NCBI RefSeq assembly: GCF_900141705.1 | Contig: NZ_FQYM01000012.1 | Location: 1 to 64,000, forward strand | DNA: 64,000 nucleotides | Direction: 5' to 3' | Origin: Fibrobacter sp. UWP2 | GTDB lineage: Bacteria; Fibrobacterota; Fibrobacteria; Fibrobacterales; Fibrobacteraceae | In this document: positions 27,125-59,760 of the stretch, piece by piece | Numbering within the stretch: position 1 is the stretch's first letter | How the letters are laid out: every line of letters begins with the position of its first letter | Notes under the pieces: model-generated | Databases searched by the model: none | Told to the model about the DNA's origin: nothing | What the model saw: the letters and a program-made list of their open reading frames with translations, nothing else | Position numbers and translations under genes: made by a program

Positions 27125-27192
27125 AATATAGAAGCCGTTTTTTAACTTGTCCAATACTTTAATTTTATGCGGAGTTATCGGTTTTTGCTATA
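27125..27192 (-). promoter_or_regulatory. Sulfur-regulon promoter, porin
   Basis: Minus strand: TTGGAC at 27154-27149, 18-bp spacer, TATATT at 27130-27125. Upstream lies the conserved GATAACTCCGCATAAAA block. Confidence 0.75.
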
Positions 27193-31919: not shown

Positions 31920-31988
31920 AATATAGAACGCGGCTTGAGCCGCGTCCAATACTATCTTTTTATGGTGTTTTATAGGTTTTTACTATAG
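31920..31988 (-). promoter_or_regulatory. Sulfur-regulon promoter, apr-cys operon
   Basis: Minus strand: TTGGAC at 31949-31944, 18-bp spacer containing a GCGGCT/AGCCGC palindrome, TATATT at 31925-31920, upstream CACCATAAAA block. Confidence 0.75.
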
Positions 31989-32068: not shown

Positions 32069-32479
32069 TTATTCGACCACGAGGCCTTCGTTCGTGGCGG
32101 TATCGCCCTCGATGTGGAAGGAATTGAGCACCGGATGTTCGCGGTCCATGAGCGAAAGAATCAAGTAGCTCGCCCTGCTATCGTAGGCAAGACGCTTGTC
32201 TTCTTCCGACGGGCGCGAAGGGGATTCCGGATGGGAATGCCAGTTGCCCAGCGGCGAGAGGCCGTTTGCACGCATGTCCTTGATGGCGGCAAGCTGTTCC
32301 TTGGGATCCAGCGAAAAATGCTCGTTCGAATGGTCGATATTCGTAAGCAGATAGACCTTCTCGATATGCTTGTCGCCACCTTCGATGCGCCCCGCAATCA
32401 GCCCGCAGGCCTCTTCGGGGAGGTTCTTTTGGGCGTGCGCGAGGATTTTTTCGTAGTTGTCTTTTGAGATTGTGATCAT
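32069..32479 (-). CDS. JAMM/MPN (M67) metalloprotease for a sulfur-carrier protein
   Basis: A 136-residue zinc peptidase of the JAB1/MPN family. The JAMM signature is complete: EEACG (Glu near 25) and NWHSHPESPSRPSEEDK (His-x-His-x10-Asp). Relatives such as Mec+ and HcyD trim or release cargo from ThiS/MoaD-like carriers. It is the last gene of a tusA - carrier - E1 - JAMM operon, so its likely substrate is the carrier at 33298-33504, which ends in Gly-Gly-Gly-Cys and would need its last residue removed. The start at ATG 32479 has AGGCGG upstream; a GTG two codons earlier is possible. Confidence 0.87.
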   Translation of the reverse strand: MITISKDNYEKILAHAQKNLPEEACGLIAGRIEGGDKHIEKVYLLTNIDHSNEHFSLDPKEQLAAIKDMRANGLSPLGNWHSHPESPSRPSEEDKRLAYDSRASYLILSLMDREHPVLNSFHIEGDTATNEGLVVE

Positions 32480-32488
32480 TCGCACCGC

Positions 32489-33298
32489 CTAGTGTTTCAA
32501 GTCGCAAACCGCCTGCTCGTAGTCGATGAGCTGCGTGATGGTCGGGTGCGTGCCGCAAACAGCGCAGTCTTCGGTATGCGTCGGAAGTTTCACCTTGCGA
32601 AATTCCATTGTGAGCGCATTGTAGGTGAGCAAGTAGCCCGTGAGCAAATTGCCCACGCCGAGAATGTACTTGACGGCTTCCATCGCCTGCAGACTACCGA
32701 TAACGCCGCCCATAGCGCCAATCACGCCCGCCTGCTTGCAGGTCGGCACGGCATCTTTCGGAGGCGGTTCCTTGAACACGCAGCGGTAGCAGGGGCCCTG
32801 GCCCGGAACATACGTCATGAGCTGGCCCTGGAAGCGGATGATTCCCGCATGGGAGAAGGGCTTTTTCGCCATCACGCAAGCGTCGTTAATGAGGAACTTC
32901 GCCGGGAAATTGTCCGTGCCGTCGATGATGAAATCGTAATCCTTGATGAGGTCGAGGATGTTTTCGCTCGTCACGAAGGTGTGGTAAGTAATCACCTTCA
33001 CATCGGGGTTCATCGCTTCCATCGTCTCTTTCGCGGATTGCACCTTGGGCTTGCCCACATCGGCCGTAGCGTGAATGATCTGGCGCTGCAGATTGGAAAG
33101 GTCGACCACGTCGGCATCGGCAATGCCGATGGTGCCCACGCCTGCGGCGGCAAGGTACATGGCCACAGGAGCCCCGAGGCCACCCGCGCCAATCACGAGA
33201 ACTTTTGCGTTCAGGAGCTTCTTCTGGCCCTTCGCACCCACCTCTTTCAAGATGATGTGACGGGAATAGCGCTCCAACTGTTCGTTAGTAAATGCCAT
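32489..33298 (-). CDS. E1-like adenylyltransferase (ThiF/MoeB/HesA family)
   Basis: A 269-residue enzyme that would adenylate the C-terminal Gly of a ubiquitin-like sulfur carrier before thiocarboxylate formation. ATP-binding GAGGLGAPV, the Arg/Gln helix NLQRQI, the DGTDNF loop, the PTCKQAGVIG loop and two zinc Cys pairs (CYRC and CAVC) are all present. It starts at the last base of the carrier gene (33298). It forms an operon with the carrier, a JAMM protease and TusA. By analogy to HcyF of Wolinella it may serve homocysteine synthesis (inference). Confidence 0.9.
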   Translation of the reverse strand: MAFTNEQLERYSRHIILKEVGAKGQKKLLNAKVLVIGAGGLGAPVAMYLAAAGVGTIGIADADVVDLSNLQRQIIHATADVGKPKVQSAKETMEAMNPDVKVITYHTFVTSENILDLIKDYDFIIDGTDNFPAKFLINDACVMAKKPFSHAGIIRFQGQLMTYVPGQGPCYRCVFKEPPPKDAVPTCKQAGVIGAMGGVIGSLQAMEAVKYILGVGNLLTGYLLTYNALTMEFRKVKLPTHTEDCAVCGTHPTITQLIDYEQAVCDLKH

Positions 33299-33504
33299 TA
33301 GCAGCCGCCTCCCATGAAGTAGAGGAACTCGACGCTGTCACCGTCCTTGAGCACGGCCTTGTCAAACGTTCCGCCTTCGACAAATTCCTCGTTCACGGAA
33401 ACCGTCACGTAAAGCGGGTTGTCAATCTTCTCAGCTTCAATCAGTTCTGCGACGGTGAGGCCGTCCTTGTATTCTTTCTTGTTTCCTGCAACTGTAATAA
33501 ACAT
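33298..33504 (-). CDS. ThiS/MoaD-like sulfur carrier with Gly-Gly-Gly-Cys end
   Basis: A 68-residue beta-grasp protein similar to ThiS and HcyS. The C terminus is FMGGGC, so the reactive Gly-Gly is masked by one extra Cys. In QbsE and HcyS systems, extra residues after Gly-Gly are known to be removed by a JAMM protease before E1 activation, and a JAMM gene lies in this operon. AAGGAG precedes the start. It overlaps the E1 gene by one base. Predicted role: carrying sulfur as a thiocarboxylate to a homocysteine- or cysteine-forming enzyme. Confidence 0.85.
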   Translation of the reverse strand: MFITVAGNKKEYKDGLTVAELIEAEKIDNPLYVTVSVNEEFVEGGTFDKAVLKDGDSVEFLYFMGGGC

Positions 33505-33518
33505 TTTACACTCCTTGG

Positions 33519-33764
33519 TTAGTCGCCGACCTTCTTCACGATAAGCGTGAAGGAGCCATCCTGGTTGTCGTCAAGTTTCAAGATTTCGTGTCCCTCTTCC
33601 TTGATGCTGCGCGGCACGTTCTGCACCGGTTCGCCGTCGTTCAGGCGAATAGAAAGGATTTGGCCTTCTTCCAGTTCCTCGAGGGCGACCTTCGCCTTCA
33701 CGAAAGTAGTCGGGCACACGACATCGGTAATGTCGATGGTATCATCAATTTTTATTTCTGCCAT
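33519..33764 (-). CDS. TusA-family sulfur-transfer protein
   Basis: An 81-residue TusA-like protein with the Cys motif CPTTFVKAK in place of the usual CPxP, at residues 17-25. TusA proteins carry persulfide sulfur between enzymes. The start at 33764 (MAEIKIDDTIDITDVV) has ACGGAG upstream. It is the first gene of the carrier-E1-JAMM operon. A truncated copy of its first 16 codons with its promoter lies at 39693-39850. Substituting Thr-Thr for x-Pro after the Cys is unusual for classical TusA but occurs in relatives that travel with carrier genes. Confidence 0.8.
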   Translation of the reverse strand: MAEIKIDDTIDITDVVCPTTFVKAKVALEELEEGQILSIRLNDGEPVQNVPRSIKEEGHEILKLDDNQDGSFTLIVKKVGD

Positions 33765-33802
33765 TGTTGTTTCTCCGTACATTGTTGTTTTAATCTGGCC
33801 CA

Positions 33803-33870
33803 AATATAGAACGCGTTCTTGCGTGCGTCCAATACATTGTTTTTATGCTGAATTATCAGTTTTTTCTATA
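33803..33870 (-). promoter_or_regulatory. Sulfur-regulon promoter, tusA-carrier-E1-JAMM operon
   Basis: Minus strand: TTGGAC at 33832-33827, 18-bp spacer, TATATT at 33808-33803, upstream GATAATTCAGCATAAAA block. The palindrome GAACGCGTTC abuts the -10. Confidence 0.8.
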
Positions 33871-39692: not shown

Positions 39693-39758
39693 TTAGTGCC
39701 CACCTCTTTCAACGACATCGGTAATGTCGATGGCATCGTCAATTTTTATTTCAGCCAT
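39693..39758 (-). pseudogene. Truncated tusA copy (first 16 codons)
   Basis: The minus-strand frame reads MAEIKIDDAIDITDVV and then ERGGH and a stop. The first 16 residues match the TusA gene at 33519-33764 with one change (Thr to Ala), and the match ends just before the catalytic Cys. The promoter region also matches, but the leader lacks the 18 bases holding ACGGAG, consistent with loss between two ATTGTTGTTT direct repeats that are seen in the intact copy. It is probably an untranslated remnant. Confidence 0.85.
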
Positions 39759-39778
39759 TGTTGTTTTAATCCGGCCCA

Positions 39779-39850
39779 AATATAGAACGCGTTTTCGCAC
39801 GCGTCCAATACATTGTTTTTATGCTGAATTATCAGTTTTTTTTCTATAGC
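39779..39850 (-). promoter_or_regulatory. Sulfur-regulon promoter, orphan copy
   Basis: Minus strand: TTGGAC at 39808-39803, 18-bp spacer, TATATT at 39784-39779, and a CAGCATAAAA block like that of the tusA promoter. It now drives only the truncated tusA remnant and points into the 3' end of pdxR on the antisense strand. Confidence 0.75.
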
Positions 39851-39867: not shown

Positions 39868-40827
39868 TTATATAATGTAGTACCACTCCTCGCTTTGGGT
39901 AATTTCTTCCGTCTTGTGTTGCTTATCGGTAGAAACGTAGTCCATTTCGAGGCTCTTCATGCTCACGCGGGTATTGGGCGCAACAGAACTCGTGATGAAG
40001 GCACTGCCACCGATAATGGCATTTTCGCCTACAACCGTATCGCCGCCTAGAATGGATGCGTTCGCGTAAATGGTTACGTTGTCCTGAATGGTCGGATGAC
40101 GCTTTTTGCCGGAGAGGCGCTGCCCCCCGCGCGTCGAGAGCGCACCAAGAGTTACACCCTGATAAATTTTCACGTTATTGCCAATAACCGCAGTTTCACC
40201 AATCACAATGCCCGTACCATGATCAATAAAGAAGTACTTGCCGATGGATGCACCCGGATGGATGTCAATTCCCGTCTTGGAATGCGCATACTCAGTCATG
40301 AGCCGCGGGAGAACCGGAACGTGCAAAAGGTAAAGTTCATGGGCAATGCGGAAAATCGTTGTCGCCATAAGGCCCGGATACGCAAGGATAATTTCGTCGA
40401 GGCACCCAGCGGCAGGATCGCCGTCATAAGCGGCATGCAAATCGGTTTCAAGACATTCGCGAATCCAAGGAATCTTCGCGAAAAATTCCTTGCAGATGCG
40501 GTAGCTTTCAATCTTGCGCTCGTCCGAAGTCATGGTGCCGCGGAGCTTGCAATAATCAAGCGCGATGGCCACCTGCTTGTGGAGGTGGTAAAAAGTATCT
40601 TCGATAATGACCGCGAAGCTGTTCTTGGGGTTGTAAATCTTGTGCGAGCGGTCCCTGAAATGTCCGGGATAAACCACACGGATTAGGTTCTGCAAAATCG
40701 TCTGAATCTCGGCCTGGTCGGGCCGATTATAGATGTCAATGTTGTCGATATGCTTGCCGCGATTGTAATCGGCAAAAATCGTCTGGACAGCTTTTTCGAC
40801 TTCTGATTCCTGGATAAGTTCGTGCAT
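39868..40827 (-). CDS. cysE: Serine O-acetyltransferase
   Basis: A 319-residue enzyme that makes O-acetylserine from serine and acetyl-CoA, the acceptor for cysteine synthesis. After a helical N-terminal domain (about 1-185), the left-handed beta-helix appears with HPGASIGKYFFIDHGTGIVIG and IYQGVTLGALS, both typical of serine acetyltransferases of the longer EpsC type. It lies 100 bases downstream of the cysteine desulfurase, the arrangement often seen beside family 2A encapsulins. A palindromic repeat fills the gap, so co-transcription is not certain. Confidence 0.92.
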   Translation of the reverse strand: MHELIQESEVEKAVQTIFADYNRGKHIDNIDIYNRPDQAEIQTILQNLIRVVYPGHFRDRSHKIYNPKNSFAVIIEDTFYHLHKQVAIALDYCKLRGTMTSDERKIESYRICKEFFAKIPWIRECLETDLHAAYDGDPAAGCLDEIILAYPGLMATTIFRIAHELYLLHVPVLPRLMTEYAHSKTGIDIHPGASIGKYFFIDHGTGIVIGETAVIGNNVKIYQGVTLGALSTRGGQRLSGKKRHPTIQDNVTIYANASILGGDTVVGENAIIGGSAFITSSVAPNTRVSMKSLEMDYVSTDKQHKTEEITQSEEWYYII

Positions 40828-40926: not shown

Positions 40927-42672
40927 CTATGCGAACGTCTTCAACGCCCTCACGAGAGCGTCGATGTCGTCCGGAGAGTTGTACAGCGCAAGCGTCGGGC
41001 GTACGGTACTTTCGTAACCGAAATGCCTGAGCACCGGCTGTGCGCAGTGGTGACCTGTACGCACGGCAACACCGTAAGCATCAAGCCTCTTGCCCACTTC
41101 TTCGTCGGAATAACCGTCGAGCTTGAAGGCGAGAGCGGAAGCCTTGTTGAGTGCCGTACCTACAAGGTGCAGACCCTTGACGGTCTTCAGTTCCTTGAGG
41201 CCATACTGCAGCAGTTCATGTTCCCAGCGGAATACGCAGGGCATCCCGATTTCGGAGAGGTACTGGAGTGCAGCACCGAGGCCAACGGCGTCAGCGATGC
41301 TTCCGGTTCCCGCTTCGAACTTGTTCGGGATTCCGTTGTAAATCGTGCGTTCGAACGTCACATCGGCAATCATGTTGCCGCCACCGTGATACGGGCGGGC
41401 CGCTTCCAGCAATTCCTTCTTGCCGTAAACGACACCGATACCGGTCGGGGCAAACACCTTGTGTCCGGAGAACACGAAGAAGTCTGCGTCGAGCGCGGAA
41501 ACATTCACCGGAATGTGCGCGATGGACTGTGCGCCGTCAATGAGGATTCTCACGCCGTGCCTGTGGGCGATGGCAATGAGTTCCTCGATCGGTGTCACGG
41601 TGCCGAGCACGTTCGAGACATGCGTCACGGAGACGAACTTTGTGCGCTTCGTGAATAGCGCCTCGTAATCGTGCAATTTGAGTTGGCCGGTAGAATCACA
41701 CGGAATCACCTTGATGATGGCGCCCGTTTCTTCGGCAATGAGCTGCCACGGCACGATGTTCGCGTGGTGTTCCAGGATGGAGACGATGATTTCGTCACCC
41801 GGCTGGAGCGTCGGCTTCACGTAAGCGTTAGCCACCAGATTGATGGCCTCGGTGGTACCGCGCACGAACACGATTTCCTGCGAAGACGGGGCCCCGATAA
41901 AGTCACGCACGATGTTGCGGGCGTTTTCATAGGCATCCGTCGATGCAGCCGCAAGCGTATGGGCTCCACGGTGCACGTTGGAGTTCTCGTTTTCGTAGTA
42001 GTACTTGAGGCGGTCAATCACCACTTGCGGGCGCTGCGTCGTAGCACCGTTATCGAGCCAAACGAGAGGATGCCCGTTTATCTGCTTCGAAAGAATCGGG
42101 AAGTCGCTACGGATCTGCGCAAGGTTCTTGGAACCGATGCGGATGGATTCGTTGCGGGAATTGGAGCCGCTGTTAGCGTTGCCGGCCTTGTTCACGGAAT
42201 CGCCACCGAGAGAAGTCGGAGTGTCGATCGGACGGGCGTTTTCTGCTGCCTGGGTCTTGGAAAGGACCTTCGGAGAATACCCCGTTGCAGGCGCAGGCGC
42301 TGCCGGGACATCGCCGAACTGCGACACAAATTCCGCTTCGGGAACCGCAGGGGCTTCCACGGAGTTGAGCCAGGTATCGGTGGAATTGCCGCCGTAGGCA
42401 AACGGTGCCGAAGTTACCGGCTGGTCGCCATAGGTCGCAAACGGATGTTCCCAGTCAAATGCGGGAGTCTGGTTAATGGCTGCTGCCCCTTGGGCGGCGC
42501 TCACTCCCTGAGCTGCAGAAGCATTCTGCACTTCGGGTGCCGCGGGAGTTGCAGCATAAGCACTGTCCGTCAGGTCGGGAAAGTACTCATTTGCTAACTG
42601 CTCCAGTTCAGCCGCATTGGGAACTCCGGCGAGCTCTTCCAGCGATCTGGTATCTGGATTATTCGTAATCAT
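40927..42672 (-). CDS. SufS-type cysteine desulfurase, encapsulin 2A cargo
   Basis: A 581-residue PLP enzyme that takes sulfur from cysteine. The catalytic part (about 185-581) has the PLP Lys in SGHKVFAPTG, the RTGHHCAQP Cys loop and the EHHANIVPW block of SufS-type enzymes. The first 180 or so residues are Ala/Pro/Ser/Gly-rich and probably unfolded, as in cargo enzymes of family 2A encapsulins, where this part targets the enzyme into the shell. The shell gene lies directly upstream and overlaps by 14 bases (start ATG 42672). It would yield sulfane sulfur stored inside the shell. Confidence 0.92.
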   Translation of the reverse strand: MITNNPDTRSLEELAGVPNAAELEQLANEYFPDLTDSAYAATPAAPEVQNASAAQGVSAAQGAAAINQTPAFDWEHPFATYGDQPVTSAPFAYGGNSTDTWLNSVEAPAVPEAEFVSQFGDVPAAPAPATGYSPKVLSKTQAAENARPIDTPTSLGGDSVNKAGNANSGSNSRNESIRIGSKNLAQIRSDFPILSKQINGHPLVWLDNGATTQRPQVVIDRLKYYYENENSNVHRGAHTLAAASTDAYENARNIVRDFIGAPSSQEIVFVRGTTEAINLVANAYVKPTLQPGDEIIVSILEHHANIVPWQLIAEETGAIIKVIPCDSTGQLKLHDYEALFTKRTKFVSVTHVSNVLGTVTPIEELIAIAHRHGVRILIDGAQSIAHIPVNVSALDADFFVFSGHKVFAPTGIGVVYGKKELLEAARPYHGGGNMIADVTFERTIYNGIPNKFEAGTGSIADAVGLGAALQYLSEIGMPCVFRWEHELLQYGLKELKTVKGLHLVGTALNKASALAFKLDGYSDEEVGKRLDAYGVAVRTGHHCAQPVLRHFGYESTVRPTLALYNSPDDIDALVRALKTFA

Positions 42673-43624
42673 AGTATTCGCCAACCTCTACGTCTTCAAG
42701 GACTGCAATGGCGTCGTCGGCAAGGATAGCCGCAGAGCAGTACAGGGAAAGCAGGTAAGAAGCAACGCCCTTGTTGTCGATGCCGCGGAAACGCACGGAA
42801 AGGCCACGAGAGTGTTCGTTCTTGAGACCGGCCTGGAAGAGGCCAATCACGCCGCGTTTGGCTTCGCCAGTGCGCACGAGCAATATATTGGTCTTGCCGC
42901 CCTGGGACTTCGGATTCTTCACGCCGTCCACGAGAAGCTTGTCGGTCGGAACGAGAGGAATGCCGCGCCAGGTGAGGAACTTGCCACCGGCGATGTCCAC
43001 GACAACGGGCGGCACGCCACGGCGGGTGCATTCGCGTTCGAAAGCGGCAATGGCACGCGGGTGAGCGAGGAAGAAGGACGGTTCCTTCCAGACCTTCGAA
43101 ATGAGTTCGTCGAGATCGTCCGGAGTCGGGCGGCCGTCGGCGCGGAGCGGCTGGATGCGCTGGGAATCAGCCACGTTCTTCAGCAGGCCGTAATCGTCGT
43201 TGTTGATGAGCAGGCTTTCCTGACGTTCGCGGAGCGATTCGATAGCGAGGCCGAGCTGTTCCTGAACCTGGTCATACGGAGAACTGTAAACGTCTTCGAT
43301 GGCCGTGTTCACGTTGATAATCGTAGAGATAGAATTCAGCTTGTATTCACGTGGCTCGGTTTCGTATTCGACGTAGCCTTCCGGAATAATGTCGGTTTTC
43401 TTGGTCTGGCTGCAAAGAACATCGAGCGGGGTTTCGCCTTCCACGACCTTGTTCACACGGAACAGGCCCGTTTCGAGACCCTTGAATTCAAGGAACTTGG
43501 TGAGCCACTTGGGAGTGAGCGCACCAAATTGCGGCTTGGTCTTGGTGACGTTCGCCAGGTTGTAGGCAGCCTTTGCGCCAAGCGCATTGATGCCGGTTTT
43601 CTTTTCTGTAGCTTCATTTGCCAT
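42659..43624 (-). CDS. Family 2A encapsulin shell protein
   Basis: A 321-residue HK97-fold shell protein of the SrpI/family 2A type. Recognisable parts are the N-terminal arm, the long middle helix region with QLGLAIESLRERQESLLINN, and the AGGKFLTWRGIPLVPTDKL stretch. Family 2A shells enclose a cysteine desulfurase and store elemental sulfur, and here that enzyme follows in an overlapping frame. AAGAGG lies before the start. It has no TTGGAC-type promoter; the 90-base leader contains a different AT-rich sequence. Confidence 0.92.
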   Translation of the reverse strand: MANEATEKKTGINALGAKAAYNLANVTKTKPQFGALTPKWLTKFLEFKGLETGLFRVNKVVEGETPLDVLCSQTKKTDIIPEGYVEYETEPREYKLNSISTIINVNTAIEDVYSSPYDQVQEQLGLAIESLRERQESLLINNDDYGLLKNVADSQRIQPLRADGRPTPDDLDELISKVWKEPSFFLAHPRAIAAFERECTRRGVPPVVVDIAGGKFLTWRGIPLVPTDKLLVDGVKNPKSQGGKTNILLVRTGEAKRGVIGLFQAGLKNEHSRGLSVRFRGIDNKGVASYLLSLYCSAAILADDAIAVLEDVEVGEYYDYE

Positions 43625-43714: not shown

Positions 43715-45193
43715 TTACAGCCATGCGCCTTCGTGCGAGAACATGATATCCTTCATGGCATCGACGCCGCCTTTAAGGTTGTAGAGCGGCCCCGTGTAGC
43801 CTGCTTCGCGCAAGGTGTTGATGGCGAGAATGCTGCGTTTGCCCTGCTTGCAGATGAAAACCGTATCCTTGTTCGGGTCCAGTTCTTTTTGCCTGCGGGC
43901 CAGCTGCCCGATGGGAATCACAATGGCGTTCGGGAATCGCAAAATCGCGCGTTCATGCGGCTCGCGCACATCCACGATAGTCATCGGGTCGCCATCGTCA
44001 ATCTTCTTCGCGAGTTCTTCGGGAGTAAAGCCCTCCACCGGAATTTCGTTTTCGGTCTTGAGCCCGCAAAGTTCATCGTAATCGATTTCCTCGACATCGG
44101 TAATCGTCGGGTTGCTCCCGCAAATGGGGCAGTTCCTGTTGCGTTCCACCTTCAAAATTCGCGAGGTCAGGTACAGGCTATCAATATGCAGGAGTTTCCC
44201 GTTCAGGTGCTCGCCGATACCGAGAAGCAATTTGAGCGCCTCGTTGGCCTGGATGCTCCCCACAATGCCCGGAAGCGGACTGATCGCACCACCCTCGGAA
44301 CAGGAGGGAATAAGCCCTGCCGGCGGAGGCGACGGGAATTGGCAACGGTAGCACGGTCCGCCGTCCAGATTGAAAATGCCCACCTGGCCCTCGAACTGGT
44401 AAATCGCGCCGAACACGACGGGAATGCCGTGCAGCGCACACGCATCGTTAATGAGGTAGCGCGCCTTGTAGTTGTCGGAGCAGTCGACCACCAAATCGTA
44501 ACCGTCAATCTGTTCCAGAATATTCGAAGAATCTAGCTGCACCTTTTCGGCGATAAATTCGATATTCCTGTTGATGTTTTTTACCTTGTCCTTGGCGGAG
44601 GCGACTTTCGGGCGCTTGATATCGCGGGAACCGTGAAGTACCTGGCTCTGCAGGTTTTCGAGCGAGACCTCGTTGAAATCGACGACCTTGATGGTCCCGA
44701 CACCCGCCGCGGCAAGGTACTGGATGACCGGCGAACCGAGCGCGCCCGCACCCGCGACAACGACCTTTGCGGCCTTGATGCGCTTTTGGCCCTTCACGCC
44801 AATTTCCTTAAGCATTAGGTGCTTGCCAAAGCGCTCCACCTCGTTGTCATCGAAGGCGACTTCCTTGCGCCTCTCGTCCGAAATGAGACTTTCGACCGCA
44901 GCGTTCTGCGATTGATCAACAGGCGCTCCGCCAGCAATCGCAGGCAACAACAGGATTTCCGTATCTTCGGGAAGCGGCGTTTCCCAGAGGGTTTCCACCG
45001 TCAGGTTCTTGCCGTTGACATAAATCTGAATAAAATTCCGGATTTTGCCACCATCATCGTAAAGGACGTTCTTGGCATCCGGATACATGTCCAAAAGGAT
45101 GAAGAGTGCCTTCCTGACCGTACTCGCGGGAATTTCTATCCGCGCATTCCTACCAAAAAAATTTCTAAGAGTAGCCGATATGTATATTTTCAC
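43715..45193 (-). CDS. Ubiquitin-like carrier - E1 - rhodanese fusion
   Basis: A 492-residue protein with three joined functions. Residues 1-89 are a MoaD/ThiS-like beta-grasp carrier ending LLLPAIAGG. Residues 113-370 are a MoeB/ThiF-type E1 (GAGALGSPV, NLQSQV, PSCSEGGAISPLPG, zinc pairs CYRC and CPIC). Residues 385-492 are a rhodanese domain with Cys in VFICKQGKRS. Gly88-Gly89 is followed by Ala90, so the carrier can only be activated after cleavage; the next operon encodes a JAMM protease that could do this. GGAGG precedes the GTG start. Proposed: self-contained thiocarboxylate formation on the carrier. Confidence 0.88.
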   Translation of the reverse strand: MKIYISATLRNFFGRNARIEIPASTVRKALFILLDMYPDAKNVLYDDGGKIRNFIQIYVNGKNLTVETLWETPLPEDTEILLLPAIAGGAPVDQSQNAAVESLISDERRKEVAFDDNEVERFGKHLMLKEIGVKGQKRIKAAKVVVAGAGALGSPVIQYLAAAGVGTIKVVDFNEVSLENLQSQVLHGSRDIKRPKVASAKDKVKNINRNIEFIAEKVQLDSSNILEQIDGYDLVVDCSDNYKARYLINDACALHGIPVVFGAIYQFEGQVGIFNLDGGPCYRCQFPSPPPAGLIPSCSEGGAISPLPGIVGSIQANEALKLLLGIGEHLNGKLLHIDSLYLTSRILKVERNRNCPICGSNPTITDVEEIDYDELCGLKTENEIPVEGFTPEELAKKIDDGDPMTIVDVREPHERAILRFPNAIVIPIGQLARRQKELDPNKDTVFICKQGKRSILAINTLREAGYTGPLYNLKGGVDAMKDIMFSHEGAWL

Positions 45194-45260
45194 TTTTTCC
45201 TCCGTACAAAAAAAAGTGGAATTTTAGACAAAATAACCACCTGGATTATTTTCACCGCGA

Positions 45261-45330
45261 AATATAGAACCGGATTTTGCCTATGTCCAATACTTAATTT
45301 TTATGCGGAATTATCGGATTTTTTTATAAC
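45261..45330 (-). promoter_or_regulatory. Sulfur-regulon promoter, carrier-E1-rhodanese fusion
   Basis: Minus strand: TTGGAC at 45290-45285, 18-bp spacer, TATATT at 45266-45261, upstream GATAATTCCGCATAAAA block. Confidence 0.8.
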
Positions 45331-45352
45331 GCCCTAGAACAGCAAGGAGTCG

Positions 45353-45730
45353 TCAGCATTTGATATCATTTTTGTAACTTCTGATATCGGCAACCCCCTC
45401 CCTTGTCACAGAAATTATCACGTAAACAAGCCCAGGGACCATGTTTTCGGCATCTTCCCTGGACGGTACAGCCTCATAATCGGGGTGCGAGTGGTAAAAA
45501 CCGACTATTTCAAGCCCGCTTCCCTCGATTTCACGCTCCACCTGGTAAAGAAAGAGTGGGTCCGCCTCGAAATGCGTCCCTCTCCCCTCCCCCTGAATCC
45601 GGTTAGGCAAAGCACGTATTTCCGTCACCTCGAACTTGCCGTCCGGGGCGTTTTTCCCGAGCAAAATCCCGCAACATTCATGCGGATAACTTTGCCGGGC
45701 TTCTTCTGCAATACGTTGCCGCCAACTCAT
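45353..45730 (-). CDS. JAMM/MPN (M67) metalloprotease, second copy
   Basis: A 125-residue zinc peptidase with YPHECCG (Glu near 18) and YHSHPDYEAVPSREDAE (His-x-His-x10-Asp). It follows the sulfite reductase gene by a few bases in a metY - sir - JAMM operon. It probably processes a ubiquitin-like sulfur carrier. The candidate substrate is the internal Gly-Gly of the fusion protein encoded next to it; the Gly-Gly-Gly-Cys carrier at 33298 is an alternative. It is distinct in sequence from the JAMM protein at 32069-32479. Confidence 0.87.
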   Translation of the reverse strand: MSWRQRIAEEARQSYPHECCGILLGKNAPDGKFEVTEIRALPNRIQGEGRGTHFEADPLFLYQVEREIEGSGLEIVGFYHSHPDYEAVPSREDAENMVPGLVYVIISVTREGVADIRSYKNDIKC

Positions 45731-45739
45731 TTCTTAACG

Positions 45740-46597
45740 CTAGACACTCGCTTCCAGGATTTTCTTCGCAAACACGTCGCGACCGATGCGGTCGATAGTG
45801 TACTTGAAACGTTCGCCAGGGTTCGCGTTCTCGGCAAAGAACGTAATGGCCGCATCGCAGATATCGAGCAACTTTTGCTTGTCTTCGATGAAGGGGATAA
45901 TCGTTTCGCCCTTGTTGATGTTGTTGCCGAAAAGCCCGCCAAAGGAGACGATGTAGCCGTGGGTATCTTCCCAGGCGTCCGTCGGGCAAGACTTGTAGCA
46001 GCGACCGCAGAAATTGCACTGCGACTCGTCGAAGATAACCTTCTTGTTTTCGACCTTGATGGCTCCCTTGCGGCAGGTCTTTGCGCAGAGCCCGCAGCCG
46101 ATGCACTTGTCTTCGAGCCACTTAACCTTGATGGCACCCTTGATGCCCACGTCGTTTTCTTCGGCCTTGAGGCAGTTGTTCTGGCAACCGGTCACGCCGA
46201 ACTTAAACTTGTGCGGGAGTTCACGGGCAAAATAGCGGTCGTCGAGCTCCTTAGCGAGCGCGTAGGTGTCGATGCACCCACTGGGGCAAACGGCTTCACC
46301 CTGGCACGCCGTAATGGTACGCACGCGGGGGCCGCAAACGCCCGGTTCCACGCCGCCTTCGGCCAAGGCCGCCTTCACGTCTTCTACGTTTTCGAGTTTG
46401 ATGAACGGAATTTCGACGCTCTGTCTGGAGGTCAAATGGGCGTAGCCTTCACCATACTTGTCGGCGACTTCCGCGATTTTGGCGAGCTGGGTGGCGGTCA
46501 GGTTTCCACCCACGACGCGTACGCGCAGCGAGAAATTGTTCTTCTGCTTCTGGCGCATCCAACCGCCCTTTTTAAGAGTTGCATAATCCGTTGCCAT
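45740..46597 (-). CDS. Small siroheme-type sulfite reductase with ferredoxin domain
   Basis: A 285-residue protein related to the nitrite/sulfite reductase 4Fe-4S family. A half-module (about 20-90, LTSRQSVEIPF) is followed by the siroheme/cluster Cys blocks TACQGEAVCPSGC and GVTGCQNNC, then two ferredoxin motifs CIGCGLCAKTC and CNFCGRCYKSCP (about 164-205). It would reduce sulfite, possibly giving sulfide directly to a carrier protein. It is about half the size of classic CysI and resembles small reductases linked to thiocarboxylate pathways. It lies between metY and a JAMM gene. Confidence 0.85.
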   Translation of the reverse strand: MATDYATLKKGGWMRQKQKNNFSLRVRVVGGNLTATQLAKIAEVADKYGEGYAHLTSRQSVEIPFIKLENVEDVKAALAEGGVEPGVCGPRVRTITACQGEAVCPSGCIDTYALAKELDDRYFARELPHKFKFGVTGCQNNCLKAEENDVGIKGAIKVKWLEDKCIGCGLCAKTCRKGAIKVENKKVIFDESQCNFCGRCYKSCPTDAWEDTHGYIVSFGGLFGNNINKGETIIPFIEDKQKLLDICDAAITFFAENANPGERFKYTIDRIGRDVFAKKILEASV

Positions 46598-46613: not shown

Positions 46614-47840
46614 TTAAATTTTCTTTATAGCTTGTTCGAAATCTTCCTTCAGATCCTCAATATTCTCGATACCGATGCTCACGCGGATAGTCCCTTCGAA
46701 AATTCCCGCATGTTCCTTCTGTTCCTTGGAACTGTGCGTAAAGATGGTGCTTTCCGGGTGAATCACCAGCGTGCGGATATCCCCGATATTGGTGGCGATG
46801 GTAGCGTACTTGAGGCCATTAATCAGCTTGAACGCCCTTTCCTTCGTGCCCGCGTCAATCGTGAGGATTGCGCCTCCCCTGCCGCCAAGCTGCTTCTGCA
46901 CCAGGTCGTAATAGGGGCTGCTTTTCAGGGCCGGATAGTTGACAGAAATGCCATCAAAGCCCTGCAAAAATTCCGAGAGTTGCAGCGCGTTGCTGCACAG
47001 GCGATCCATGCGCAGCCCGAGAGTCTCGAGCCCGAGCGAATTCAGGAAAGATGTTTGGGGAGCAACGCAGCAACCCACGTTGCGCCAGATTCCGTTGCGC
47101 AGCTTCGCGATGTAGGCGAACTTGCCAAAACGCCTGTATTCTTCGAGGCCCCTATAGCGGGCGTAATCCCAAGGGAAGTTCCCGCTATCGACAATGAGGC
47201 CGCTAATCGCAGAACCGCTCCCGTTAATGTACTTCGAAGACGAATGCACCACGATATCCGCGCCGAAATCGAAGGGATGCACAAGATACGGGGTCGCCGT
47301 CGTGCTATCGACGATAAACGGGACGCCACCCTCGTGGGCGACATCCGCGACGGCATTCAGGTCAACGACATTCAGTTTCGGGTTTCCGATAAGCTCGGTA
47401 AACACCGCCTTCGTCCTTTCGTTCAGCTGTTCGCGGACACTTTCAGCAGTCACTTCGGTAACAAAGCGAGTCGTAATGCCGAACGCTTCCAGGTCATGGA
47501 ACAGGTCGATTGTACCGCCAAAAAGCCCGGCACTCGCAATCACTTCGTCGCCCGCGTGCAAAATGTTCAAAAGCGAGATAGTCACCGCCGCCATGCCCGA
47601 AGAACACGCCACCGCGCCGATTCCCTTCTCGAGCGATGCAATGCGGCGTTCAAAGGAATCGTTCGTGGGGTTCGCGATGCGCGTATATGCAAAACCCGGA
47701 GCCTTGTTGTTGAACACGGCTTCGAGTTTTTCGGCGGAATCCTGTGAAAAGGCGCTCACCTGGTAAATCGGCGCAAGCGTAGAACCGCTACATCGGTCGC
47801 TACCAAAATTCTGGTGCAATAAAGCAGTATTGAATTCCAT
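46614..47840 (-). CDS. metY: O-acetylhomoserine sulfhydrylase (MetY type)
   Basis: A 408-residue PLP enzyme of the Cys/Met metabolism family that would join sulfide, or sulfur from a carrier thiocarboxylate, to O-acetylhomoserine to form homocysteine. The PLP Lys lies in HSSSKYINGSG; FAYTRIANPTNDSFERR, CSSGMAAV and the Asp in IVDSTTATPY are typical. In Wolinella, MetY works with HcyS, HcyD and HcyF; all three types exist in this window. It is the first gene of the metY - sir - JAMM operon with a sulfur-type promoter and a GGAG leader. Confidence 0.9.
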   Translation of the reverse strand: MEFNTALLHQNFGSDRCSGSTLAPIYQVSAFSQDSAEKLEAVFNNKAPGFAYTRIANPTNDSFERRIASLEKGIGAVACSSGMAAVTISLLNILHAGDEVIASAGLFGGTIDLFHDLEAFGITTRFVTEVTAESVREQLNERTKAVFTELIGNPKLNVVDLNAVADVAHEGGVPFIVDSTTATPYLVHPFDFGADIVVHSSSKYINGSGSAISGLIVDSGNFPWDYARYRGLEEYRRFGKFAYIAKLRNGIWRNVGCCVAPQTSFLNSLGLETLGLRMDRLCSNALQLSEFLQGFDGISVNYPALKSSPYYDLVQKQLGGRGGAILTIDAGTKERAFKLINGLKYATIATNIGDIRTLVIHPESTIFTHSSKEQKEHAGIFEGTIRVSIGIENIEDLKEDFEQAIKKI

Positions 47841-47875: not shown

Positions 47876-47943
47876 AATATAGAACGGTATTTCAACCCCG
47901 TCCAATACTTAATTTTTATGCGGAATTATCAGTTTTTTCTATA
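47876..47943 (-). promoter_or_regulatory. Sulfur-regulon promoter, metY-sir-JAMM operon
   Basis: Minus strand: TTGGAC at 47905-47900, 18-bp spacer, TATATT at 47881-47876, upstream GATAATTCCGCATAAAA block. Confidence 0.8.
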
Positions 47944-50722: not shown

Positions 50723-50792
50723 AATATAGAACGCGTTTTCCCGTGCGTCCAATACTTAATAATTATGCTGAATTATCAATTTTTTCTATAAC
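50723..50792 (-). promoter_or_regulatory. Sulfur-regulon promoter, cysTWA operon
   Basis: Minus strand: TTGGAC at 50752-50747, 18-bp spacer, TATATT at 50728-50723, upstream GATAATTCAGCATAA block. Confidence 0.8.
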
Positions 50793-58770: not shown

Positions 58771-58835
58771 AATATAGGCACCATTTCGCCCAATGTCCAA
58801 TACAATAATTTTATGTTAAGTTATAGTTTTTTTCT
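58771..58835 (-). promoter_or_regulatory. Sulfur-regulon promoter, sbp
   Basis: Minus strand: TTGGAC at 58800-58795, 18-bp spacer, TATATT at 58776-58771, upstream ATAACTTAACATAAAA block, the most divergent of the minus-strand sites. Confidence 0.7.
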
Positions 58836-58878: not shown

Positions 58879-59760
58879 CTATTCCCCCAGCACGTGCCGG
58901 AGCGTATCGAGGAAAAGTTCGCCCGCACGCGTGAACTGCTGGCCCCGCCGCCAAATGATGTACATGTTGGTGGTGAGCTCGGGCATGAGCGGCCTGAAAC
59001 ACAGGCGCGAACTGCGGCTCGTATCCACCAGTCCGTCGAAAGTGAGCAGGTAGCCCGTGCCCTCTTTGGCAAGCACCGAACCGTTGTACGAAAGATCCAG
59101 CCCCACAATCACGTTCAGCCTCGAAATATCGTCGCCGAACCATTTCGGCAAATCCGCCACCATCGCCTGGCGCGACGCCATCAGCGGCTTGTCGAGCAAG
59201 TCCTTCGGCTCGATGAAATCCCGCTTGGCCAAAGGGTCGTCGCGACGCATCACCACGCCCCAACGGTCCACCGAACGCACCGCAAGACAGTTGTACTTTT
59301 CCAAATCAACGTTATCTACAACCACCGCGAAATCAAAAATGCCCTTGTCCAGCTTTTCCAGAGCGCGCTCGCTGTCGCCAGAATATAAGTTGTACTTAAT
59401 CTTCGGATAGTCGTCCCGGAGAATCCCGATGCACTTCGAAAGAAAATTCACGTTCCGCGATTCCGCACAGGCAATGGCGATTTCACCCACCACCTCGTCT
59501 TCCTTCAGCGACTTGAAATCCTGCACCGTCCTGTCCGCCATCGAAAGGATGTCCTCCGCACGCTCCCGCAAGAGTTCCCCCGCAGGCGTCAGCCGAATCG
59601 CGTAATTCGTGCGCTCGAAAAGCTTTTCGCCCAGTTCCTCCTCCAACTCCTTGAGCTGGCGACTCACCGTCGGCTGCGTCACGCAAAGATTATCCGCCGC
59701 GCGCGAGACATTCCCCAACCGCGCCGCCTCCAGAAAATACCGCAAAACTCGAAGTTCCAT
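58879..59760 (-). CDS. LysR-family transcription regulator
   Basis: A 293-residue LysR protein. The N-terminal winged helix (about 1-65; VSRAADNLCVTQPTVSRQLKELEEELGEKLFER) is followed by a periplasmic-binding-protein-type effector domain (about 90-293). It is immediately upstream of sbp on the same strand, with the sbp promoter between. CysB-type LysR proteins control sulfate genes in other bacteria, so this is the best candidate in the window for recognising the conserved GATAATTCxGCATAAAA block. That link is inference. Confidence 0.87.
   Translation of the reverse strand: MELRVLRYFLEAARLGNVSRAADNLCVTQPTVSRQLKELEEELGEKLFERTNYAIRLTPAGELLRERAEDILSMADRTVQDFKSLKEDEVVGEIAIACAESRNVNFLSKCIGILRDDYPKIKYNLYSGDSERALEKLDKGIFDFAVVVDNVDLEKYNCLAVRSVDRWGVVMRRDDPLAKRDFIEPKDLLDKPLMASRQAMVADLPKWFGDDISRLNVIVGLDLSYNGSVLAKEGTGYLLTFDGLVDTSRSSRLCFRPLMPELTTNMYIIWRRGQQFTRAGELFLDTLRHVLGE

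What the first reader, a model, noticed from the sequence alone, without database searches (positions are those of the whole stretch)
43715..45730. Sulfur carrier fused head-on to its E1 and a rhodanese, with a JAMM protease next door
The protein at 43715-45193 joins a MoaD/ThiS-like carrier ending in Gly88-Gly89, an E1 enzyme and a rhodanese in one chain. The Gly-Gly is followed by Ala90, so the carrier has no free C terminus and cannot be adenylated unless the chain is cut there. JAMM proteases of this type cut after Gly-Gly in ubiquitin-like carriers, and one is encoded in the next operon at 45353. This suggests a polyprotein-like sulfur carrier that is released, activated and sulfurated by its own attached enzymes. 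The alternative is that the internal Gly-Gly is not used and the domain only binds the E1.
Basis: partly seen in the sequence, partly recalled or inferred. Interest (0 to 1): 0.8.

Follow-up and report, generated by a model that had tools for sequence, protein, structure and literature searches.

The report
Self-fused sulfur carrier freed by protease
A rumen bacterium (Fibrobacter) makes a small sulfur-carrying protein joined to the enzymes that load it, and comparison of dozens of genomes strongly suggests that a neighbouring protease must cut it free before it can carry sulfur for an encapsulin-linked sulfur-assimilation pathway.

Summary
One 492-aa protein joins a SAMP/CysO-like carrier (ends at G88-G89), a MoeB/ThiF-type E1 and a rhodanese, and an intact JAMM gene lies directly upstream. 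Cleavage by the JAMM is well supported comparatively but not shown biochemically.
(1) 76 of 79 fused orthologues from five phyla keep GG. Of 70 with at least 0.9 kb upstream, 66 have the JAMM next door.
(2) Unfused relatives (JAMM - carrier - E1-Rhd - encapsulin) have carriers with 2-27 extra residues after GG (5 of 5 with an adjacent JAMM). Carriers without an adjacent JAMM end exactly at GG (7 of 7).
(3) One planctomycete branch nested inside the family lost the second Gly, the E1 catalytic Cys, ATP-site residues and every JAMM in the genome, but kept the rhodanese.
(4) Fusion arose at least three times, by the tree.
The gene heads a conserved operon with a family 2A encapsulin, its cysteine-desulfurase cargo and serine acetyltransferase. 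It shares a promoter motif with sulfate-assimilation genes.
JAMM release of fused or capped carriers is known (MoaD-MoaE, QbsE, HcyS) and was predicted in 2006. I found no report of a carrier fused to its own E1-rhodanese in an encapsulin operon.

The parts
43715..45193 (-). carrier-E1-rhodanese fusion gene (492 aa, GTG start): carrier residues 1-89, linker 90-112, ThiF/MoeB E1 ~113-360, rhodanese ~385-480
44927..45193 (-). ubiquitin-like sulfur carrier domain ending PAIAGG (Gly88-Gly89), predicted cleavage after Gly89
   Evidence: NCBIfam SAMP1 and moaD_arch matches end at residue 89; G88 and G89 invariant in 32 aligned orthologues
45353..45730 (-). JAMM2 metalloprotease (125 aa), predicted to cut the fusion after Gly89
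   Evidence: PF14464 E=1e-21; HxHx7SxxD in 68 of 68 homologues; adjacent to the fusion in 66 of 70 loci
42659..43624 (-). family 2A encapsulin shell protein
   Evidence: NF041162 E=5e-143, PF19307; downstream of the fusion throughout the rumen clade where the contig allows
40927..42684 (-). encapsulin cargo cysteine desulfurase with ~190-aa N-terminal extension
   Evidence: NF041166 E=6e-229, slightly under its cut-off; SufS over cut-off
39868..40827 (-). serine O-acetyltransferase
   Evidence: TIGR01172 E=2e-48, below equivalog cut-off; synteny
45740..46597 (-). small sulfite reductase with ferredoxin domain (AsrC/DsrAB-like)
   Evidence: PF01077, PF03460, Fer4
46614..47840 (-). MetY-like O-acetylhomoserine/O-acetylserine sulfhydrylase
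   Evidence: TIGR01326 E=2e-128, below cut-off; next to JAMM2-fusion in many loci
32069..32485 (-). JAMM1, protease of the second, unfused carrier system
   Evidence: PF14464, NF041370
32489..33298 (-). E1 without rhodanese (HcyF-like)
   Evidence: 44% identical to the fusion's E1
33298..33504 (-). standalone carrier ending MGGG-Cys (capped, HcyS-like)
   Evidence: TIGR01683/PF02597; tails of 1-6 residues in all relatives
33519..33803 (-). TusA-like sulfurtransferase of the unfused system
   Evidence: PF01206 E=4e-20
45261..45306 (-). shared promoter/operator-like motif (GCATAAAAANNNNGTATTGGAC-N17-TCTATATTT) upstream of the fusion-encapsulin operon

Best explanation
The protein is a sulfur-carrier precursor fused in cis to its own activating enzyme. 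While fused, Gly89 is in a peptide bond and has no carboxylate to adenylate. JAMM2, encoded next door, hydrolyses the bond after Gly89 in a flexible linker and releases an 89-residue carrier ending in Gly-Gly plus a free E1-rhodanese. The E1 then adenylates the carrier. The rhodanese domain (Cys448), charged probably by the encapsulin-associated cysteine desulfurase, passes sulfur via E1 Cys298 to make the thiocarboxylate. The thiocarboxylate feeds a PLP sulfhydrylase (MetY-like, or CysK with O-acetylserine from the adjacent serine acetyltransferase). JAMM2 may also release the amino acid from the carrier afterwards, as HcyD and Mec+ do. Shown by sequence: architecture, conserved GG, JAMM adjacency, co-loss, gene set and shared promoter motif. 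Inferred: the cleavage itself, JAMM2 as the protease, the sulfur source and the product.
For: GG is kept in 76 of 79 fused orthologues and JAMM lies directly upstream in 66 of 70 with enough sequence. In 32 diverse fusions only L9, F54, P84, A87, G88 and G89 of the carrier are invariant. Unfused relatives in the same operon carry caps after GG (AR, GHAG, KPINNSQLKINN, SAMHLPVDGQSVPSIAGG and longer) in 5 of 5 cases with adjacent JAMM, against none in 7 of 7 without (Fisher p=0.0013). In planctomycetes L066, L068 and L069, nested inside the GG clade, GG became GE, E1 Cys298 became D/G and ATP-site residues changed (G153A, K196R or D240N/H125N), while the rhodanese Cys-x-x-G-x-R stayed; their genomes have no JAMM and no ThiS-family carrier. 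All 68 JAMM2 proteins keep the catalytic motif. AlphaFold gives a confident beta-grasp carrier and pLDDT below 50 at residues 89-99. Precedents: DRJAMM cuts natural MoaD-MoaE and is needed in vivo (PMC8832034); HvJAMM1 cuts SAMP1-MoaE and restores function (PMC4443979); MoaX is cut between Gly82 and Ser83 (PMC4326299).
Against: No cleavage has been observed. The correlations rest on few independent events: 2 GG losses and 1-2 independent tail/JAMM contrasts. Four GG-bearing fusions have no adjacent JAMM: L022 has a short contig; L108 and L113 have a JAMM elsewhere in the genome; L114's genome has none found in an 83%-complete assembly. HvJAMM1 does not strictly need GG for linear fusions, as reported in PMC8832034. 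L211 lost GG but keeps the E1 Cys, so a fused carrier domain can persist beside an active-looking E1. The metabolic role is read from gene context only.
Confidence: 0.78

Rival explanations
1. The internal Gly-Gly is not used. The N-terminal domain is a tethered, non-catalytic ubiquitin-like domain that stabilises or regulates the E1, which acts on other carriers such as the standalone HcyS-like protein.
For: Ub-like domains fused N-terminally to ThiF and used beside a separate solo ThiS are described (Campylobacter type, PMC1779556). A standalone carrier and E1 exist 10 kb away. L211 keeps the domain without GG.
Against: GG is the most conserved part of the domain. GG loss coincides with loss of JAMM and of the E1 active site. 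Unfused relatives are ordinary capped carriers. The standalone carrier already has its own E1 and JAMM.
Confidence: 0.12
2. The fusion is cleaved after Gly-Gly, but by another protease (JAMM1 or a general protease). JAMM2 serves only to hydrolyse the carrier-amino-acid adduct, like Mec+.
For: MoaX is cut by a protease unidentified at the time (PMC4326299). The Succinivibrio genome of L071 has GG and only one detected JAMM, the JAMM1 type. Mec+/HcyD-type adduct hydrolysis is established (own knowledge).
Against: JAMM2 is the syntenic partner of the fusion in 66 of 70 loci. QbsD-type JAMMs remove caps after GG (PMC6006322), and HcyD does both jobs (own knowledge). L071's upstream contig is only 814 bases.
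Confidence: 0.1
3. The released product is a ubiquitin-like modifier (sampylation type) rather than a metabolic sulfur carrier, with JAMM2 as the deconjugase.
For: The carrier's best family match is SAMP1 and the JAMM's is desampylase.
Against: The neighbours are mostly sulfur-assimilation genes under a shared promoter motif, and the rhodanese active site is intact. SAMP1 itself is also a sulfur carrier.
Confidence: 0.05

Closest known systems
Deinococcus MoaD-MoaE/DRJAMM, mycobacterial MoaX, SAMP1-MoaE/HvJAMM1
   Same: A carrier fused through its Gly-Gly to a partner enzyme must be cut after Gly to work; JAMM does it in Deinococcus and Haloferax (PMC8832034, PMC4326299, PMC4443979).
   Different: There the partner is the sulfur acceptor enzyme MoaE. 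Here it is the carrier's own activating E1 plus rhodanese, in a cysteine/methionine-type context with an encapsulin.
Capped sulfur carriers with JAMM and E1-rhodanese: QbsE/QbsD/QbsC, PtmS2/PtmS1
   Same: Same three components; JAMM removes a cap after GG (PMC6006322). The unfused relatives here (L212-L218) are of this kind.
Wolinella HcyS-Ala/HcyD/HcyF/MetY/Sir methionine pathway (Krishnamoorthy & Begley 2011, details from own knowledge; cited; Iyer row 4e)
   Same: JAMM trims a C-terminal residue after GG; sulfite reductase and MetY in the cluster. The standalone system at 32-34 kb (carrier ending GGG-Cys, E1 without rhodanese, TusA) is of this type.
   Different: The finding's protein is a second, separate system with a fused carrier and a rhodanese-bearing E1.
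Family 2A encapsulin / cysteine desulfurase operons (SrpI type)
   Same: Shell, SufS-like cargo, serine acetyltransferase, and a rhodanese as accessory (PMC8346489).
   Different: The rhodanese is part of a carrier-E1 fusion with a JAMM; the two encapsulin papers searched (PMC8346489, PMC8049743) do not mention ThiF in their main text.

Membership tests
JAMM-processed linear carrier fusion (MoaX/MoaD-MoaE type of processing) | Carrier domain ending in Gly-Gly followed in frame by a partner domain | tested here: met
JAMM-processed linear carrier fusion (MoaX/MoaD-MoaE type of processing) | Catalytically intact JAMM encoded in the genome, preferably adjacent | tested here: met
   HxHx7SxxD in 68 of 68; adjacency 66 of 70
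JAMM-processed linear carrier fusion (MoaX/MoaD-MoaE type of processing) | Actual cleavage after the second Gly | not testable with these tools
   needs expression and mass spectrometry
JAMM-processed linear carrier fusion (MoaX/MoaD-MoaE type of processing) | Partner is MoaE | tested here: not met
   partner is ThiF/MoeB E1 plus rhodanese
MoeZ/Uba4-type E1-rhodanese | ATP site, catalytic Cys, Zn Cys4 and rhodanese Cys | tested here: met
   G148, G150, G153, D240, C298, C281/C284/C355/C358 and C448 present and invariant in 32 fusions; Uba4 and MoeB are top structure matches
Wolinella HcyS/HcyD methionine pathway | Standalone carrier capped by one residue, E1 without rhodanese, JAMM, Sir, MetY | tested here: inconclusive
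   met by the separate system at 32-34 kb plus Sir/MetY; not met by the fusion itself, which has a rhodanese and a fused carrier
Family 2A encapsulin cysteine-desulfurase operon | Family 2A shell gene with SufS-like cargo bearing a long N-terminal extension | tested here: met
   loading into the shell not tested

The most novel reading that the evidence does not exclude
A new variant of sulfur-carrier maturation. A carrier is made as a polyprotein with its own E1-rhodanese, so protease release delivers carrier and activating enzyme in 1:1 ratio, and the sulfur is drawn from an encapsulin-housed cysteine desulfurase. This would link family 2A encapsulins, whose sulfur outlet is unclear, to a thiocarboxylate pathway. 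The fusion evolved several times because the JAMM makes the carrier's stop codon dispensable.
Probability: 0.6. Interest if true: 0.72.

Novelty: new variant of a known kind. Interest (0 to 1): 0.62.

Why it matters
It gives a simple, testable case of a protein whose function depends on a neighbour protease cutting a ubiquitin-like domain off its own activating enzyme, an arrangement reminiscent of ubiquitin precursors. It also offers a candidate answer to where the sulfur from encapsulin-associated cysteine desulfurases goes. The operon is shared by rumen and gut bacteria of several phyla, so it bears on how they assimilate sulfur. It supplies a natural experiment (co-loss of Gly-Gly, E1 active site and JAMM) rarely available for such systems.

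Tried and rejected
Chance or artefact: rejected by the many orthologues. Coordinates on the plus strand: wrong strand (one search gave stops). Non-functional JAMM: rejected, motif intact in 68 of 68. 'Orthologues without GG refute it': they exist, but the main group has no JAMM and a decayed E1 site. Riboswitch or leader control: no Rfam match in 27-60 kb. A phylogenetically strict test of tail versus JAMM was underpowered (1-2 independent pairs). The Wolinella paper is not in the held library, so its details are from own knowledge. The intrinsic-terminator scan around the operon gave no more hits than shuffles.

Full report
What is there. The window comes from a Fibrobacter-type genome (G000, 3.23 Mb, 100% complete; its close orthologues are Fibrobacter records). 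The carrier profile ends exactly at Gly89, and the chain continues Ala90-Pro91. The 125-aa JAMM at 45353-45730 is intact. By sequence the nearest solved relatives are a Thermus MoaD-related protein, SAMP1 and CysO for the carrier, prokaryotic JAMM proteins and JAMM1 for the protease, and MoeB and Uba4 for the E1.

Neighbourhood. Downstream come a family 2A encapsulin shell, its cargo-type cysteine desulfurase and a serine acetyltransferase. Upstream come a small sulfite reductase, a MetY-like sulfhydrylase, a sulfate ABC transporter, a sulfate-binding protein and a LysR regulator. Ten kilobases away a second, unfused system is encoded: carrier ending GGG-Cys, E1 without rhodanese, JAMM1, TusA, next to AprBA and CysD. 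That system matches row 4e of Iyer et al. 2006 and the Wolinella HcyS type (own knowledge). The genome has only these two JAMMs, and besides the two carriers here one further ThiS-like carrier above the family cut-off.

Orthologues. A scan of 84,980 species genomes returned 70 loci, nearly all gut or rumen: Fibrobacter, Lachnospiraceae and other Clostridia, Thermoguttaceae, Ruminobacter/Succinivibrio and Treponema zioleckii. JAMM2 - fusion - encapsulin - cysteine desulfurase (- serine acetyltransferase) is the recurring order. Other Fibrobacterota genera have a related fusion with a short linker. Of 79 junctions read, 76 keep AGG, followed mostly by Ala or Ser, then Pro. Of 70 GG fusions with at least 900 bases upstream, 66 have a JAMM directly upstream. 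In 32 diverse fusions just six carrier positions are invariant, and Gly88 and Gly89 are two of them. Mean column conservation is 53% for residues 1-83 and 93% for residues 84-89.

Unfused relatives. In Planctomycetota the same operon occurs with separate genes: JAMM2 - carrier - E1-rhodanese - encapsulin - desulfurase (L212, L214, L215, L218; L213 without encapsulin in view; L216 with a JAMM elsewhere in the genome). Their carriers all run past GG by 2 to 27 residues of unrelated sequence. Carriers next to E1-rhodanese genes without a JAMM nearby (L224, L229, L230, L274, L276, L277, L281) end exactly at GG. The contrast is 5 of 5 against 0 of 7 (p=0.0013), although it holds only one or two phylogenetically independent contrasts. 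The standalone carriers of the other system likewise have 1-6 extra residues and a JAMM1. So the fusion is the extreme of a series of removable caps.

Natural experiment. Three planctomycete fusions (L066, L068, L069) read AGE or TGE instead of AGG. They sit deep inside the GG-bearing clade, so the change is a loss. Two have enough upstream sequence, and neither has a JAMM there. Whole-genome searches find no JAMM in any of the three and no ThiS-family carrier. Their E1 catalytic Cys298 is now Asp or Gly and ATP-site residues have changed, while the rhodanese Cys448/Gly451/Arg453 and the zinc cysteines remain. Carrier C-terminus, E1 chemistry and JAMM have decayed together, as expected if they form one functional unit. 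A second GG loss (L211) also lacks an adjacent JAMM but keeps the E1 Cys. The genomes are assemblies of unstated completeness, so absence carries some doubt.

Recurrence. On the E1-rhodanese tree the fused state needs five changes, at least three forced by well-supported branches; some of these could be losses. Repeated fusion at the same point is easy to understand if a JAMM already trims whatever follows GG: losing the carrier's stop codon then costs nothing. This is inference.

Structure. AlphaFold2 on the 32-sequence alignment (mean pLDDT 83.8) gives a confident beta-grasp carrier, E1 and rhodanese. Residues 89-99 have pLDDT below 50, consistent with an exposed flexible scissile segment.

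Mechanism. A carrier glycine in a peptide bond cannot be adenylated (established E1 chemistry). The simplest reading is JAMM2 cleavage after Gly89, then adenylation by the released E1, sulfur from the rhodanese, and use of the thiocarboxylate by a PLP sulfhydrylase. Gene context offers MetY, serine acetyltransferase and, in several Lachnospiraceae and planctomycete loci, CysK with an Rrf2 regulator resembling CymR. The window's genome has two CysK/CysM genes elsewhere. Whether the product is cysteine or homocysteine is undecided, and so is whether the sulfur comes from the encapsulated desulfurase or from sulfite reduction.

Regulation. A motif GCATAAAAANNNNGTATTGGAC-N17-TCTATATTT lies before the fusion gene, the MetY operon and the unfused carrier operon. 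Eight of the nine genome-wide copies of its first part (up to 2 mismatches) are in this window, all on the minus strand, most just upstream of sulfur genes. Chance expectation in the window is 0.00. The fusion-encapsulin operon is thus likely part of one sulfate-assimilation regulon.

What is known and what is new. Iyer et al. 2006 predicted that JAB proteases free ThiS/MoaD from fusions (PMC1779556). Cleavage is shown for Mycobacterium MoaX between Gly82 and Ser83 (PMC4326299), Deinococcus MoaD-MoaE by DRJAMM (PMC8832034) and SAMP1-MoaE by HvJAMM1 (PMC4443979). Capped carriers typically need a JAMM-type protease (PMC6006322). An encapsulin survey lists serine acetyltransferase and rhodanese as accessories of 2A operons (PMC8346489). 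I found no report of a carrier fused to its own E1-rhodanese in an encapsulin operon, but most subscription papers were not searchable. Verdict: real, well supported, a new variant of a known kind.

Noticed in passing
27149-27170, 31944-31965, 33827-33848, 39803-39824, 45285-45306, 47900-47921, 50747-50768, 58795-58816 (all minus strand): Promoter/operator-like motif GCATAAAAANNNNGTATTGGAC (with N17-TCTATATTT after it where aligned), 8 of 9 genome-wide copies in this window, mostly upstream of sulfur genes; candidate regulator is the LysR at 58879-59760.
   Followed up: partly
33718-33870 and 39712-39846: Imperfect direct repeats (92-95% identical, about 5.98 kb apart) that duplicate the motif and the start of the tusA gene. 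They flank a segment with a DsrE/TusA/rhodanese gene, a biotin-synthase-like gene, PdxS/PdxT-like genes and a GntR-aminotransferase regulator, which looks inserted between serine acetyltransferase and tusA (adjacent in L007).
   Followed up: partly
L066:7141-8775, L068:3-1559, L069:9932-11737: Planctomycete fusions with a decayed E1 site and lost GG have gained a long Cys-Asp-Ser-rich linker (repeats such as CDSGCESVCGSP). It might be a persulfide or metal site in place of the carrier.
   Followed up: no
L213:9717-10061: The separate carrier's 18-residue cap itself ends in a copy of the carrier C-terminus (VPSIAGG...VPSIAGG).
   Followed up: no
L071:829-2292: Succinivibrio fusion keeps GG but its genome has only one detected JAMM, of the JAMM1 type; one JAMM may serve both carriers.
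   Followed up: partly
window 32069-33803: Canonical unfused capped-carrier system (carrier ending GGG-Cys) in the same cluster, so one genome has two carrier/E1/JAMM sets.
   Followed up: yes
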